From: Deltaproteobacteria bacterium
Lineage (GTDB): Bacteria > Myxococcota_A > UBA9160 > PR03
Assembly (NCBI GenBank): GCA_035063765.1
Contig: JAPSFT010000007.1
Span: forward strand, 124,001 to 188,000
Length of the DNA: 64,000 nucleotides
Direction of reading: 5' to 3'
Of the stretch, positions 30,164-36,920 are shown piece after piece. Position numbers and translations under genes: made by a program. The notes beneath the pieces were generated by a model that ran no database searches, was not told where the DNA came from, and saw only the letters and a list, made by a program, of their open reading frames with translations. Every line of letters begins with the position of its first letter. Positions within the stretch are counted from its first letter, which is position 1.

Positions 30164-30703
30164 ATGCTGCGCAAGCTCCTCCTGCTCTGCCTCGACGAGG
30201 AAGCGGGCGGGGACGGCCCGGCCGACGCCGCGGGCGCGCTGCGCCGCCTCGCGCACCACTGGGAGTGGATCGACGGCGTCCTCGCAGCGCCGGAGGGTCT
30301 CGCCCTCGCGGCGGCGCGCACGGCCCCGGTCCCGGTCGGGCTCGACGCGAGGCTCGGGCGCGAGGGCGCCGGGGAGGCCGGGGCCCGCGAGCTGCTCGCC
30401 GCGCTCGCGGCTGCTCGATGGCGCGGCGCGCTGCTGCTGCTCGGCGCCCCGGCCTTCGGGAGCCTCTGGTCCGCGACGGCCGGCGGCGTGCCCCCGAGCG
30501 GGCCGCGCTTCGGGTCGGTGGGCCTGCTCACGCGCGCCGCGGGAGGACCCTGGCTGCGCGGGCGCCGCTCGAGCGATCCCCTGCCGCTCCGTTCGCAGCT
30601 CGAGCGCGAGGGCTTCTGCGAGCTCGCCGTGCTCGAGGCCGAGCGCCCGCGCGAGGTCGCCGCGCTCCAGCTCGCGGGCGGGGGCGGCTGGCGCGAGCGC
30701 TGA
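30164..30703 (+). CDS. hypothetical protein behind the DUF3604 gene
   Basis: 179 aa, ATG three bases after the DUF3604 stop, so co-translated with it. The start MLRKLLLLCLDEEAGGDG and the run WRGALLLLGAPAFGSLWSAT give a mixed alpha/beta impression. The ending (DPLPLRSQLEREGFCELAVL) is charged. No motif I know is present, and no signal peptide is convincing. A degenerate sulfatase/phosphatase-like fold is conceivable because the neighbours are of that kind, but no metal ligands are visible. Function unknown. Confidence 0.6.
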   Translation: MLRKLLLLCLDEEAGGDGPADAAGALRRLAHHWEWIDGVLAAPEGLALAAARTAPVPVGLDARLGREGAGEAGARELLAALAAARWRGALLLLGAPAFGSLWSATAGGVPPSGPRFGSVGLLTRAAGGPWLRGRRSSDPLPLRSQLEREGFCELAVLEAERPREVAALQLAGGGGWRER

Positions 30704-30760
30704 GGTCCGCGCTGCGGAAGGGATCGCACGACGCGACGGCAGCCGTCGGGCCGAGCACCC

Positions 30761-33343
30761 CTACGTCCCGATCCGGAGGAGGCGGACGAGCGGCCCCGCA
30801 GGCGAGCGCTCGGCGCGCAGGTCGACCTCGCCCGCCAGGTGCCAGAGGTCCTCGCCGCCCGGGTCGCAGAGCACCTGCTGCAGGCTCCAGCGCCGCGGCT
30901 CCTCCTGGCGCAGGACGGTCTTGTCGGCGCTGCGGGCGCGCGGCTCGAAGACGATGCGCCCGTGCTCGGCGAAGAAGGGCGCGAGCGCGCGCTCGAAGCG
31001 CGCCTCGTCCCAGGGATCCCCGGGGTCGGCACGCACGCACGCCGCGGCCGCCTCCCAGTCGCGCGCCGCGAGCGCGCGCACGAGCTGGTGGAGCTCGCCG
31101 CGCACGCGCGCGGCGAGCGCGCGCGGGTGGCGCGCGAGGTCGTAGGGCTGGGGCGCCGGAGCCGGCCGATCGCGGCGCCGTCCCGAAGGGTCCAGAGCAC
31201 TCGCACCGCCCGGCCGCAGGCGCTCCTCCCACTCCTCGACGAGGCTCGAGTCCACCCGCGCCAGCAGCGCGCGGAAGAAGCCGATCGCGTCCCACAGCTC
31301 GTCGTCGCGCGCGGCCTCCGGCACCGACTGGACGAGCACGTTGTGGAACTGCGAGAGGTAGCGGAGCAGGAGGCCCTCGCTGCGCTGGATGCCGTAGCGG
31401 CGCACGTAGTGGTCGAAGTCCTCGTAGCCCTCCCACATCTCGCGGGCCACGGACTTCGGGCGCAGCGGCTCCTCGGCGAGCCATGGGTGCTTCTCGCAGA
31501 AGAAGGCGAAGCTCGCGCGCAGGAACTCCTCGGCGGGCTTCGGGTGGGTCACCTCGGCGAGCTTCGCCATGCGCTCCTCGTACTCGACCCCCTCCGCCTT
31601 GAGCCGCGCCACGAGCTCCGCCCGGGCCTGCTGCACCTGCTGCTGGAGGACCGGCCGGGGGTCCTCGAGGATCGCCTCCACGAGCGACAGGACGTCGCGG
31701 GCGTAGTCGGGCGACGTGCGGTCGAGGAGCCCGACCGCGTCGACCAGGTAGAGCGCCAGCGACTGGTGCAGCGAGAAGTCGCGCTGGAGATCGGCGGCCA
31801 GGCGCACGGTGGCGCAGCCAGCCTCGACGTCGAAGACGCGCTGGACGAGGCCCGCCGCACGCAGCGAGCGGAACAGACGGGCCGCCTCGCGGCGCAGCAC
31901 ACGCTTGCGGGCCGGCGGCTCGTGCGAGCGCTCGATCAGCTCGACGAGCAGGCGGTGGCCGGTCCCCCGCACCCCTTCGTCGAGCCCGCGCTGGAGCGAC
32001 GCCACGAGCATTCCGTGCCCGATCCGGAAGCGCGACTCGAGCCTCTCCGGGGGGCTCGCCGCGAGCTTCTCGAAGGCCTCCTTCGACCAGCCGACGAAGC
32101 CGGGCGGCGGCTTCTTCTTCTGCGCCTTCTTCCCGCCGCCCGCCGCCCGGGCCTCGATGCGCTTGTTCTCGACCACGTGCTCGGGCGCCTGGCACACCAC
32201 CCAGCCGTGGTCGTCGAAGCCCTTGCGTCCGGCGCGCCCGGCGATCTGCTGGAAGTCGCGGACCGAGAGCAGGCCCGTCTTCTCGCCGTCGAACTTCACG
32301 AGCCCCGAGAAGAGCACGGTGCGGATCGGCACGTTCACGCCGACGCCGAGCGTGTCGGTGCCGCACACGACCCGCAGCAGGCCGCGCTGGGCGAGCTGCT
32401 CGACCAGCAGCCGGTAGCGCGGCAGGAGCCCCGCGTGGTGGAGGCCGACCCCGTGCTTCAGGATGCGCTGCACGTCCTTGCCGTAGGGCGAGTCGAAGCG
32501 CACGCCGGCCAGCGCCTCGGCGATCGCCTGGCGCTGCTCGCGCGTCGCCAGCTGCGCGCTGGTCAGCGCCTGGGCCTGCTCGGCCGCCTCGCGCTGGGTG
32601 AAGAAGACGACGTAGACGGGCGCACGCCCGCTCGCGAGCAGCTCCTCGACCGTCTCGTGGAGCGGCGTCTCGCGCCACTCGAAGCCGAGCGGCACGGGCC
32701 GCTCGTCGCTGTGCACGTGGGCGGCCGGACGCCCGCTCTGGCGCACCAGCTTCTCCTCGATCGGCGCGGTGTTGCCGAGCGTCGCCGACATCAGCAGGAA
32801 CTGGGTGCGCTCGAGGAGCAGGAGCGGCACCTGCCACGCCACGCCCCGCGCCGGGTCGGCGTAGAAGTGGAACTCGTCCATCACGACGCAGGGCGCGTCG
32901 GCGGCCTCGCCCTGGCGCAGCGCCATGTTCGCGAGCACCTCGGCGGTGCAGCAGACGACGGGCGCCGCCCAGTTGATGCTGGCGTCGCCGGTGAGCATCC
33001 CCACCTGCTCGGGGCCGAGCTCCGCGCACAGCGCGAAGAACTTCTCGTTGACGAGCGCCTTCACCGGTGCGGTGTAGAACGAGCGGCGGCCCTCGCAGAG
33101 CGCCTTCCAGTGCAGGCCGAGCGCCACCAGCGACTTGCCCGAGCCGGTCGGTGTCGAGAGCACCACGTGCTTGCCGGCCCAGAGCTCGAGGAGCGCCTCC
33201 TCCTGCGCGGGATAGAGCGTGAGGCCCGTGTCGGCGACCCACCCGAGGAAGCGATCGAGCGACGCCTCGGGCGCGAGCGGGCCGTCGGGCAGGCGCGGGC
33301 CGAGGCGCGAGGCCGCGGGCGCTTCGGTGTCGGGGGCGCTCAT
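30761..33343 (-). CDS. Ski2-like DEAD/DEAH RNA helicase with DUF3516
   Basis: 860 aa, ATG at 33343. The helicase core is complete: LSTPTGSGKSLVALGL (Walker A), MDEFHFY (DExH variant), LMSATLG (motif III), CGTDTLGVGVN and QIAGRAGRKGF (motif VI). A lysine-rich linker (GGKKAQKKKPPPG) and a ~400-residue C-terminal helical region follow, matching DUF3516 proteins. This group belongs to the superfamily 2 Ski2/Mtr4-like helicases, and bacterial members are thought to act on RNA. It is divergent from the SNF2 gene with only 58 bp between the starts, so a shared promoter region is likely. Predicted cytoplasmic. Confidence 0.9.
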   Translation of the reverse strand: MSAPDTEAPAASRLGPRLPDGPLAPEASLDRFLGWVADTGLTLYPAQEEALLELWAGKHVVLSTPTGSGKSLVALGLHWKALCEGRRSFYTAPVKALVNEKFFALCAELGPEQVGMLTGDASINWAAPVVCCTAEVLANMALRQGEAADAPCVVMDEFHFYADPARGVAWQVPLLLLERTQFLLMSATLGNTAPIEEKLVRQSGRPAAHVHSDERPVPLGFEWRETPLHETVEELLASGRAPVYVVFFTQREAAEQAQALTSAQLATREQRQAIAEALAGVRFDSPYGKDVQRILKHGVGLHHAGLLPRYRLLVEQLAQRGLLRVVCGTDTLGVGVNVPIRTVLFSGLVKFDGEKTGLLSVRDFQQIAGRAGRKGFDDHGWVVCQAPEHVVENKRIEARAAGGGKKAQKKKPPPGFVGWSKEAFEKLAASPPERLESRFRIGHGMLVASLQRGLDEGVRGTGHRLLVELIERSHEPPARKRVLRREAARLFRSLRAAGLVQRVFDVEAGCATVRLAADLQRDFSLHQSLALYLVDAVGLLDRTSPDYARDVLSLVEAILEDPRPVLQQQVQQARAELVARLKAEGVEYEERMAKLAEVTHPKPAEEFLRASFAFFCEKHPWLAEEPLRPKSVAREMWEGYEDFDHYVRRYGIQRSEGLLLRYLSQFHNVLVQSVPEAARDDELWDAIGFFRALLARVDSSLVEEWEERLRPGGASALDPSGRRRDRPAPAPQPYDLARHPRALAARVRGELHQLVRALAARDWEAAAACVRADPGDPWDEARFERALAPFFAEHGRIVFEPRARSADKTVLRQEEPRRWSLQQVLCDPGGEDLWHLAGEVDLRAERSPAGPLVRLLRIGT

Positions 33344-33401
33344 CGCGGCGCGAGGGTAGTGGATGCCCGGGCGGGACGGGTTTCCTACGCTGCGCGCCCG
33401 C

Positions 33402-36335
33402 ATGGCTTCCTCGTCGCTCTTCGAGGCGGTGCGCAAGGCGGCCTCGCGCCACGCCTGGTCGCGGGGCGTCGAGCTCGTGCGCGCGCAGGCCGTCACGCTC
33501 GAGGCGGAGGGCGCGGACGAGCTGCGCCTGCGGGTCGCCGAGCCGGGCGCGGTGGTCGCGCGTGCGGTGACGCTGCTCCCGGCCGACGGCGCCTGGGACT
33601 GCGACTGCGCCGGCGAGGAGGACCCCTGCGAGCACGTCGCCGCCGCGGCGATCGCGTGGCGACAGGCGGGCGGCGCCCTGCCCCGCCCGGCGCCCGGCGA
33701 AGGTGGCGGGCGGCTGCGCTACGCGCTCTCGCGCGGTGCGGGCGGGCTCGCGCTCGCGCGGCTCGCCGTCGCAGCCGACGGCGGCGAGCAGGTGCTCGCG
33801 GTGCGCCTGCGCGCGCTCGCGGCCGGGCGCGTCGCGGGCCCCCGCGTGGCCGCCGAGGAGATCGATCTCGCGGTCGACGATGCGCTCGACGACCCGCGCG
33901 GGGGCCCTCTCGGCCGCGCCGGCCTCACGCGCCTCCTGCCGCTCCTCGCGCGCTGCACCGACGTGCGTCTCGACGGGGTCCCGGTGCGCTGCGAGCCCGA
34001 GCCGCTCGCACCCCAGGGCTTCGTCGAGGACCACGCGGGCGGCTTCCTGCTGCGCGTCGAGCTGCTGCCGCCCGGCGCCCAGCCGGTCGGCGAGGGCTTC
34101 GCGCTCGTCGCGGGCGCGCTCCGGCCACTCCGCGAGACGCGCCTCGGCGCCCGCGAGCTCGCAGAGCTCCCGCGCGGGGAACTCTTCGCGCCCGAGCGTG
34201 CGGCCGAGCTCGCGGCCGAGGTGCTCCCGGACCTCGCGCGGCGCATCCCGGTGGAGGTGCGGACGCGGCGGCTTCCGCGCGCCGGCGCGCGCCGCGAGCC
34301 GCCGCGGATCGTGATCGCGACGCACCGCCAGGGCGAGGCGCTCGCCGTGCGTGCCGACCTCGTCTACGGCGACCCGCCGCGCGCGCGCGTCGAGGCAGGC
34401 CGGCTGATCCCGCTCGGAGGCGCCGTGCCGCTCCGCGACGAGCCTGCCGAGCGGGCGCTCGCGCGGCGCGTGCAGGGCGAGCTGGCGCTCCCGGTCGGCG
34501 CCGAGCTCGTGCTGCGCGACGAGGCCGCGCTCGAGACCGCCGCGCGCCTGCGGAGCTGGCCGGGCGCGATCGAGGGCGATGCGCACGCCACCTTCGTCCG
34601 CGCGCCCGCGCTCGCGCCGAGGCTCGGCGGCGAAGGGGAGCGCGTCGAGCTCTGGTTCGAGGGCGCCACGCCGGGCGCGCCCCTCCGGGTGGACGCTGCG
34701 CGCGTGCTGCGCGCCTGGGAGGAGGGACGCACGTTCGTGTCGATCGGCGAGGGAGGCCTTGCGCCCCTCCCCGCCGACTGGCTCGCGCGCTTCGGCCGCG
34801 AGGCGGCGGCCCTGCTCGAGCAGCGCCGCGCCGACGGCAGCCTGCCGCGCGCCGCGCTTCCGGATCTCGCCCGCCTCGCCGCCGCGCTCGACACCCCGCC
34901 GCCCCCCGCCCTCGACGGGCTGCGCGCCCTCGTCGACGGCTTCACGGCGACGCCGCCCGCCGCGCTGCCGCCGGACCTGCGCGCGGAGCTGCGCGGCTAC
35001 CAGCGCGCGGGCGCCGACTGGCTCTGCTTCCTGCGCGACGCCGGCCTCGGCGCGCTGCTCGCCGACGACATGGGCCTCGGCAAGACGCTCCAGGTGCTCT
35101 GCGCCCTGCCTGCCTCCAGGCGGACCCTCGTCGTGTGCCCGACGAGCGTGCTCCAGAACTGGGCCGACGAGCTGCGCCGCTTCCGGCCGGGCCTCGCCGT
35201 CGCCATCTACCACGGCCCCGCGCGGAGCCTCGATCCCGGCGCCGACGTGACCCTCACGACCTACGCGATCCTGCGTCTCGAGGCGGAGGCGCTCGCCGCC
35301 GCCGCCTGGGACACGGTCGTCCTCGACGAGGCCCAGGCGATCAAGAGCCCGGACAGCCAGGTCGCCCGGGCCGCCCGCGCGCTGCGCGCCGGCTGGCGCG
35401 TGGCCGTGACCGGCACGCCGGTCGAGAACCGCCTCGAGGAGCTGTGGAGCCAGCTCCACTTCGCGAGCCCGGGGCTGCTCGGCTCGCGCGCCTCGTTCCA
35501 GACGCGCTGGGCGCGGCCGATCGCGGCCGGCGAGCCGGGCGTCGCCGAGGCGCTGCGCCGGCGCCTGCGCCCCTTCGTGCTGCGCCGCCGCAAGAGCGAG
35601 GTCGCCCCCGAGCTGCCGCCGCGCATCGAGCGCGTGCTGCGCTGCGAGCTCGACCCCGAGGAGCGCGCGGTCTACGAGGCGATCCGTGCCGCCACGCGCC
35701 GCGAGGTCGCCGAGCGCCTCACGGCGGGTGCGAGCCCGCTCGCCGCGCTCGAGGCGCTCCTGCGCCTGCGCCAGGCCGCCTGCCACCGCGGGCTCGTGCC
35801 GGGGCAGCAGGCGGGTGCGGGTCCGGCGGGCTCGTCGAAGCTCGAGCTGCTCGTCGAGGAGCTCGGCACGGCGGTCGCCGAGGGCCACAAGGCGCTGGTC
35901 TTCTCGCAGTGGACGAGCCTGCTCGACCGGGTCGAGCCGGCCCTCGCGGCGGCGGGGATCGCCTGGACCCGGCTCGACGGCAGCACCCGCGACCGCGCCG
36001 GGGTGGTGGCCCGCTTCCAGGACGCGGCGGGGCCGCCGGTCCTGCTCGTCTCGCTCAAGGCCGGGGGCAGCGGCCTGAACCTGACCGCGGCCGACCACGT
36101 CTTCCTGCTCGACCCGTGGTGGAACCCGGCGGTCGAGGACCAGGCCGCGGACCGCGCGCACCGGATCGGCCAGACCCGGCCGGTCGAGATCCACCGGCTC
36201 GTCGCGGCCGACAGCGTCGAGGAGCGCGTGCTGGCGCTCCAGGCGCGCAAGCGTGCCGCCGCCGACGCGGCGCTCGGCGACGCGGGTGCCGCCGCGGCGC
36301 TCACCCGCGAGGACCTGCTGGCCCTGCTCGACTAG
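33402..36335 (+). CDS. SNF2-family ATPase with SWIM zinc finger
   Basis: 977 aa from ATG at 33402 (an in-frame ATG at 33363 gives 13 extra residues). The N-terminal SWIM zinc finger is exact: C67-x-C69-x6-C76-x-H78 ([14 protein letters not shown]). The SNF2 ATPase starts near residue 530: [15 protein letters not shown] (Walker A, about residues 555-562), [24 protein letters not shown] (DEAQ), [14 protein letters not shown]. The helicase C half has [35 protein letters not shown] and [14 protein letters not shown]. Such ATPases translocate on double-stranded DNA and can displace bound proteins. The stop is 33 bp ahead of a histone-fold gene on the same strand, an unusual and suggestive pairing. 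Confidence 0.93.
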
Positions 36336-36368
36336 CTCGTTAGAGTCTCGCCCTCGGAGGGACCCGGC

Positions 36369-36920
36369 ATGGAGGCGGCCGATCGCTGGCGGCGCTGCAG
36401 CTCGTGCAAGGCGCCGCTCGCCTTTGCCGCGCCGTACTGGGCCTGCAACGTCTCCACCTGCAACCGCGGGCGCACGGCGCTCACCTTCTGCTCGGTGTCG
36501 TGCTGGGACGCGCACCTGGCCGTGGTGCCGCACCGCGAGTCGTGGGCGCTCGAGCGCCGCGCGCCGACGCGCGCGGAGTGGGCCGCGAAGCTCGCGGAGG
36601 ACGGGGGGGAGGAGCGGCCGGCCGAACGGGCCCCCGCGACCGCAGCCCCGGCGCGCGCTCCGTCCGCGCCCCCTGCCGCCGCCGCCGCGCCGCGCCGCAT
36701 CCTCCCGCCGCCGGCGCCGGCCCGGCCGGACCCCCTCGCGCGCGAGGTCCTCATCGTCGCCTCGAAGCTCAAGGCCTACGTGCGCGCGCGCGCCGGGATG
36801 AACACCTCGGACCGCTGCGTCGAGCCGCTCTCGGACGCGGTGCGCGAGCTGGCCGAGCGCGCCATCGAGAAGGCGCGCGCCGAGGGGCGCAGGACCGTCC
36901 TCGAGCGCGACTTCGAGTGA
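36369..36920 (+). CDS. zinc-finger / histone-fold fusion protein
   Basis: 183 aa, ATG with GGAGGG (36356-36361) well placed. Residues 10-55 hold a two-zinc, MYND/HIT-like finger: C10-x2-C13, C26, C31, C41-x3-C45-x3-H49 and H55 (FCSVSCWDAH core). Residues 60-122 are a Pro/Ala-rich linker. Residues 123-183 look like a bacterial histone fold: helix 1 VLIVASKLKAYVRARAG, loop MNTSD, long helix 2 VEPLSDAVRELAERAIEKAR, loop with the Arg-Thr pair GRRTVLERD, and a very short helix 3. This is the arrangement of Bd0055-like histones. It is predicted to bind DNA or other proteins. It follows the SNF2 ATPase gene by 33 bp, so the two are likely co-transcribed. Confidence 0.8.
   Translation: MEAADRWRRCSSCKAPLAFAAPYWACNVSTCNRGRTALTFCSVSCWDAHLAVVPHRESWALERRAPTRAEWAAKLAEDGGEERPAERAPATAAPARAPSAPPAAAAAPRRILPPPAPARPDPLAREVLIVASKLKAYVRARAGMNTSDRCVEPLSDAVRELAERAIEKARAEGRRTVLERDFE

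What the first reader, a model, noticed from the sequence alone, without database searches (positions are those of the whole stretch)
36369..36920. Treble-clef zinc finger fused to a bacterial histone fold
Seen: residues 10-55 carry a MYND/HIT-like Cys/His array (CxxC, C, C, CxxxC, H, H); residues 123-183 show the helix-loop-helix-loop pattern SKLKAYVRARAGMNTSD / long helix / GRRTVLERD of bacterial histones; a Pro/Ala linker joins them. Known: most bacterial histones are small single-domain proteins, with some fused variants. Helix 3 is almost missing, which may alter dimerisation. The finger could read a partner or RNA while the histone fold binds DNA.
Basis: partly seen in the sequence, partly recalled or inferred. 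Interest (0 to 1): 0.7.

Follow-up and report, generated by a model that had tools for sequence, protein, structure and literature searches.

The report
ZZ-finger bacterial histone, published family
This gene encodes a small bacterial histone that carries a zinc-finger domain, a kind of protein described in 2024; it is a clean new example, and its relatives show the finger also made as a separate protein in genomes that always carry a separate histone, which hints that finger and histone work together.

Summary
In detail: window 36369-36920 (+) is a real 183-aa gene with an eight-ligand Cys/His finger (C10 C13 C26 C31 C41 C45 H49 H55), a Pro/Ala linker and a histone fold (125-182). It is not a new fusion. 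It matches the "ZZ histones" of Schwab et al. 2024 (PMC11390915) at seven of eight ligand positions; the eighth (paper C43, here C45) is probably a misprint there. The histone part is closest to Bdellovibrio HBb and keeps nearly all its DNA-contact residues. The short helix 3 is the rule for this family (alpha3 histones), not an oddity. The finger resembles ZZ more than MYND/HIT, by fold only and weakly.

New here, from relatives: (1) in one Bdellovibrionota order the finger is a separate protein in 15 genomes, and all 15 also carry a separate histone (6 of 20 genomes with fused genes do). (2) Finger tails and fused linkers share an Arg-flanked hydrophobic motif. (3) A SWIM/SNF2 ATPase gene lies directly upstream in the window's family and again in a second phylum. 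(4) This genome also encodes an archaeal-type histone with a full helix 3, common in its class.

Likely function: an HBb-like DNA-bending dimer whose fingers tether a partner. The partner is unknown.

The parts
36369..36920 (+). ZZ histone gene, 183 aa plus stop
   Evidence: ORF and translation; coding-type substitution pattern; conserved relatives
36354..36360 (+). likely ribosome-binding site (GGAGG), about 8 nt before the ATG
   Evidence: sequence; match by eye only
36387..36602 (+). ZZ-like zinc finger with its following strand and helix, residues 7-78; ligands C10 C13 C26 C31 C41 C45 H49 H55
   Evidence: invariant ligands; AlphaFold2 model; fold match to ZZ domains, not significant
36603..36740 (+). 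Pro/Ala-rich linker, residues 79-124
   Evidence: sequence; mostly low pLDDT
36690..36713 (+). linker motif PRRILPPP (residues 108-115); R109 invariant in 20 relatives
   Evidence: RR[ILV][ILVMA] in 35 of 80 fused linkers, 0.86 expected by shuffling
36741..36914 (+). alpha3-truncated histone fold, residues 125-182
   Evidence: HBb match E=1e-9, 5e-13 by profile; HBb DNA-contact residues conserved
33363..36335 (+). SWIM-like/SNF2 ATPase gene directly upstream (gap 33 bp); candidate operon partner; start codon uncertain (33402 also possible)
   Evidence: Pfam SNF2 1.1e-58; adjacency conserved in the window's family and in three Bdellovibrionota genomes; CxC...CxH SWIM pattern seen by eye, not a Pfam hit

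Best explanation
The protein is a ZZ histone: a nucleoid protein that dimerises through an HBb-like, alpha3-truncated histone fold and binds and bends DNA in the HBb manner (inferred from conserved contact residues). Two zinc fingers on flexible linkers then tether or recruit a protein partner. The finger plus linker motif is a histone-associated adaptor that can act fused to the histone or as a separate protein (inferred from gene fusion/fission). In the window's lineage the upstream SWIM/SNF2 ATPase is a candidate partner. Shown: architecture, conservation, relatives, gene order. Inferred: zinc binding, dimer, DNA binding, partner binding.
For: Eight invariant Cys/His ligands. HBb match and HBb DNA-contact residues kept in 78-79 of 80 relatives at S9, K12, T23, S24, R51, T53, R57, D58. 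Finger-only proteins in 15 Bdellovibrionota genomes, all 15 with a separate histone, against 6 of 20 genomes with the fused gene. Shared linker/tail motif well above shuffled expectation. SNF2 gene directly upstream in two phyla.
Against: No partner is known. Schwab et al. note that the eukaryotic ZZ peptide pocket is not conserved and that half of ZZ proteomes lack a second histone. Short finger-only proteins also occur in two Myxococcota genomes (G101, G291) with no alpha3 or HMf-type histone detected. SNF2 adjacency is absent from most lineages. The 15-of-15 count is not corrected for relatedness.
Confidence: 0.6

Rival explanations
1. The finger is a second nucleic-acid contact: a net-basic module that widens the DNA footprint or bridges duplexes, without a protein partner.
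For: Residues 7-66 carry 8 Arg/Lys against 3 Asp/Glu (sequence); R56 is nearly invariant; the shared motif is Arg-flanked.
Against: ZZ, the nearest fold, is a peptide-binding domain in known cases (general knowledge; for H3 tails). A separate finger protein would not then need to travel with a histone.
Confidence: 0.2
2. The finger reads the tail of another histone, like eukaryotic ZZ domains that bind H3.
For: In the window's class 50 of 54 ZZ-positive genomes have a second histone (counted by hand).
Against: Peptide-pocket residues not conserved. The second histones here are short and mostly tail-less. Outside the class ZZ is usually the only alpha3 or HMf-type histone found, and 14 of 20 Bdellovibrionota genomes with the fused gene have no second one.
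Confidence: 0.1
3. The finger is a structural or sensing element (zinc or redox) that controls dimer stability or DNA binding of its own histone.
For: Eight invariant Cys/His ligands.
Against: Conserved non-ligand positions (V28, S29, T30, R56, A60, P66) extend beyond the ligands. No recurrent metal or redox neighbours were seen. The finger exists apart from the histone.
Confidence: 0.05

Closest known systems
ZZ histones (Schwab et al. 2024, PMC11390915; e.g. D0LYE7 of Haliangium ochraceum; Bd3044 of B. bacteriovorus is the likely counterpart there)
   Same: N-terminal finger with C4 and C2H2 sites at the same numbered positions, linker, C-terminal alpha3-truncated bacterial-dimer-like histone fold
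   Different: The paper prints C43 where this protein and all relatives aligned here have C45 (probably a misprint). The paper does not describe finger-only relatives, finger plus double histone, the linker motif or the SNF2 neighbour in the sections read.
Bacterial dimer histone HBb (Bd0055), PDB 8cmp, 9ezz, 9f0e
   Same: Histone fold, short helix 3, DNA-contact residues, R-D clamp
   Different: HBb is a single domain without finger or linker and is abundant; the ZZ histone of B. bacteriovorus is reported as low in abundance.
Eukaryotic ZZ domains (p62, p300, HERC2)
   Same: Best fold neighbours of the finger; C4 plus C2H2 cross-brace arrangement as described for ZZ histones
   Different: No sequence match; E=0.2 at best; peptide pocket reported as not conserved.
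MYND / HIT fingers
   Same: Treble-clef-like CxxC ... CxxxC array
   Different: Last ligand His instead of Cys; no Pfam hit for the window finger; fold matches rank below ZZ.

Membership tests
ZZ histone | N-terminal finger with C4 and C2H2 ligand sets | tested here: met
   All eight ligands present and invariant in relatives; seven of eight positions identical to the published HMM numbers
ZZ histone | Finger has the ZZ fold | tested here: inconclusive
   First six Foldseek hits are p62 ZZ domains, best probability 0.80, E=0.2; no sequence-level match
ZZ histone | C-terminal alpha3-truncated, bacterial-dimer-like histone fold | tested here: met
   HBb match; last helix 177-181 in the model
ZZ histone | RKTxxxD motif of the histone fold | tested here: met
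   R174 R175 T176 ... D181, with K replaced by R; R, T and D kept in 78-79 of 80 relatives
ZZ histone | Two bound zinc ions; homodimer; DNA binding | not testable with these tools
Bacterial dimer histone (HBb type) | Stand-alone histone fold without other domains | tested here: not met
   Finger and linker precede the fold
MYND or HIT finger | Final ligand Cys (HxxxC) and family profile match | tested here: not met
   Final ligand is H55; no Pfam match for the window protein or its finger; MYND structures rank below ZZ
SWIM/SNF2 operon partner | Gene order SNF2 then ZZ histone conserved beyond one family | tested here: inconclusive
   Present in the window's family and three Bdellovibrionota genomes, absent in most others

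The most novel reading that the evidence does not exclude
The ZZ finger with its Arg-flanked hydrophobic motif is a dedicated bacterial histone cofactor that works in cis (fused) or in trans (finger-only protein plus separate histone), and in some lineages it is coupled to a SWIM/SNF2 ATPase, giving a bacterial histone-remodeller module.
Probability: 0.2. Interest if true: 0.85.

Novelty: new member of a known kind. Interest (0 to 1): 0.45.

Why it matters
The window protein itself is a plain member of a family already described, but nobody knows what the finger of ZZ histones does; I found no experimental study of it in the papers searched. The split finger-only proteins, the shared motif and the SNF2 neighbour turn that into testable predictions: which protein the finger binds, and whether bacteria pair histones with SNF2 ATPases. 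The co-resident archaeal-type histone makes this Myxococcota class a place to look for bacterial chromatin with more than one histone type.

Tried and rejected
Pfam and NCBIfam: no Pfam hit for the window protein; one sub-threshold archaeal-histone hit in NCBIfam. Finger profile against PDB sequences: nothing meaningful, so the ZZ label rests on fold alone. Viral contigs: no relative. Conserved neighbours over 80 loci: none general; SNF2 only in the window's family and one Bdellovibrionota locus; other shared neighbours are lineage-specific. Neighbours of finger-only genes: none shared. Finger tree (108 rows, 60 columns): too few columns to place the Bdellovibrionota finger-only proteins; only the short Myxococcota fingers form a well-supported clade. 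A phylum-wide SNF2 search failed on the server and was replaced by two narrower ones. Idea that finger-only ORFs are frameshifted fusions: rejected, no histone motif in the 600 nt downstream in any of the three forward frames for all 15 (one of them, L136, was flagged by a loose pattern that fell on its linker). Antisense and other-frame long ORFs over the gene (e.g. 30528-36533, -) are taken as high-GC by-products.

Full report
CHECK. The ORF at 36369-36920 (+) translates to 183 aa. It has a GGAGG 8 nt before the ATG, and its differences from the nearest relative pile up at third codon positions (17/19/68). A match occurs in 30 of 41 sampled genomes, nearly all of the same order, with all eight finger ligands invariant in the aligned sequences. 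The long open frames on other strands here are taken as high-GC by-products.

WHAT IT IS. Residues 125-182 match Bdellovibrio histone HBb (8cmp; E=1e-9; 5e-13 by profile). An AlphaFold2 model gives a well-predicted finger (residues 11-80 in ten-residue blocks of mean pLDDT 88-97) that continues into a strand (60-64) and a helix (68-77), a mostly poorly ordered linker, and helices 131-142, 148-171 and 177-181. A finger-only model resembles ZZ domains first (p62, probability 0.80, E=0.2), with MYND lower. Neither match is statistically significant and no sequence profile matches, so 'ZZ' is a fold label.

KNOWN KIND. Schwab et al. 2024 (PMC11390915) define 'ZZ histones' with this architecture and list ligands at HMM positions C10 C13 C26 C31 C41 C43 H49 H55. 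P0001 has the same numbers except C45. C45 is invariant in all relatives aligned here, so C43/C53 in the paper is probably a misprint (my inference).

HOW IT LIKELY WORKS. HBb contacts DNA through T8 S9 K10 K12 K16 N22 T23 S24 A25 K52 T53 R57 and clamps R51-D58. In 80 ZZ histones S9, K12, T23, S24, R51, T53, R57 and D58 keep the HBb residue in 78-79; K10 is always K or R; K16 is mostly R or K; K52 mostly K or R; N22 is N in 64; T8 is replaced by A or V. DNA binding in the HBb manner is therefore likely, though untested.

SPLIT FORM. In one Bdellovibrionota order (55 genomes) 15 genomes encode the finger as a separate protein whose tail carries [ILV][ILV]R[RK] near its end. All 15 also encode a separate HBb-like histone. 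Of 20 genomes with the fused gene only 6 have a second histone (Fisher p=1.8e-5; relatedness not corrected; genome states counted by hand). Fused linkers carry a related motif (RR[ILV][ILVMA] in 35 of 80, 0.86 expected by shuffling); in the window it is PRRILPPP, with R109 invariant in 20 sequences. Read as a gene fusion or fission, this suggests that finger and histone act together. Counter-examples: a separate subfamily of short fingers (about 62-73 aa, clade support 99) in some Myxococcota, two of them (G101, G291) in genomes without a detected alpha3 or HMf-type histone.

NEIGHBOUR. A SWIM-like/SNF2 ATPase gene ends 33 bp upstream. The order SNF2 then ZZ histone, same strand, holds in the window's family; in two relatives (L035, L038) a minus-strand ORF that reads like a REP-associated transposase lies between them (recognised by eye, not searched). 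It recurs in three Bdellovibrionota genomes with gaps of about 34-55 bp. Most other genomes of the class have a homologue of this SNF2 protein elsewhere.

OTHER HISTONES. This genome also encodes a 74-aa histone with a full helix 3 (G000:C18:32344-32526; Pfam Histone 7e-11). The type occurs in 39 of 72 genomes of the class and in none of the other 214 sampled in the phylum, and is conserved. One family of the class (f5) lacks it and mostly has a stand-alone alpha3 histone instead. Counted by hand, 50 of 54 ZZ-positive genomes of the class have a second histone; it is also common in ZZ-negative ones, so there is no dependence. A 2025 paper states that nucleosomal histones are found only in archaea and eukaryotes. 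I could not build multimers, so calling this one nucleosomal is a sequence judgement.

VERDICT. Observation confirmed; interpretation partly right; the protein is a new member of a known family. The value lies in the relatives.

Noticed in passing
L031:1489-1713 (G000:C18:32344-32526), same genome as the window: A 74-aa archaeal-type (HMf-like) histone with a full helix 3 and RKT motif; found in 39 of 72 genomes of this Myxococcota class and in none of 214 others sampled in the phylum, although a 2025 paper says nucleosomal histones are restricted to archaea and eukaryotes.
   Followed up: partly
L128-L142: Finger-only proteins of Bdellovibrionota, finger plus linker with a conserved [ILV][ILV]R[RK] motif near the C-terminus, always in genomes with a separate HBb-like histone.
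   Followed up: partly
L115-L120: Very short finger-only proteins (about 62-73 aa) in other Myxococcota, a distinct clade with a PTARHR signature; no Pfam or NCBIfam family.
   Followed up: partly
L015:1288-2133 (-), L121:1884-2735 (+), L122:1941-2702 (-): Single ORFs with a ZZ finger followed by two histone folds.
   Followed up: no
window 33363-36335: SWIM-like/SNF2 ATPase gene directly upstream of the ZZ histone; the same order recurs in Bdellovibrionota (L092, L146, L147).
   Followed up: partly
L057 (CAMBZJ010000041.1): A contig labelled Klebsiella pneumoniae carries a ZZ histone; most likely a mislabelled metagenome bin.
   Followed up: no
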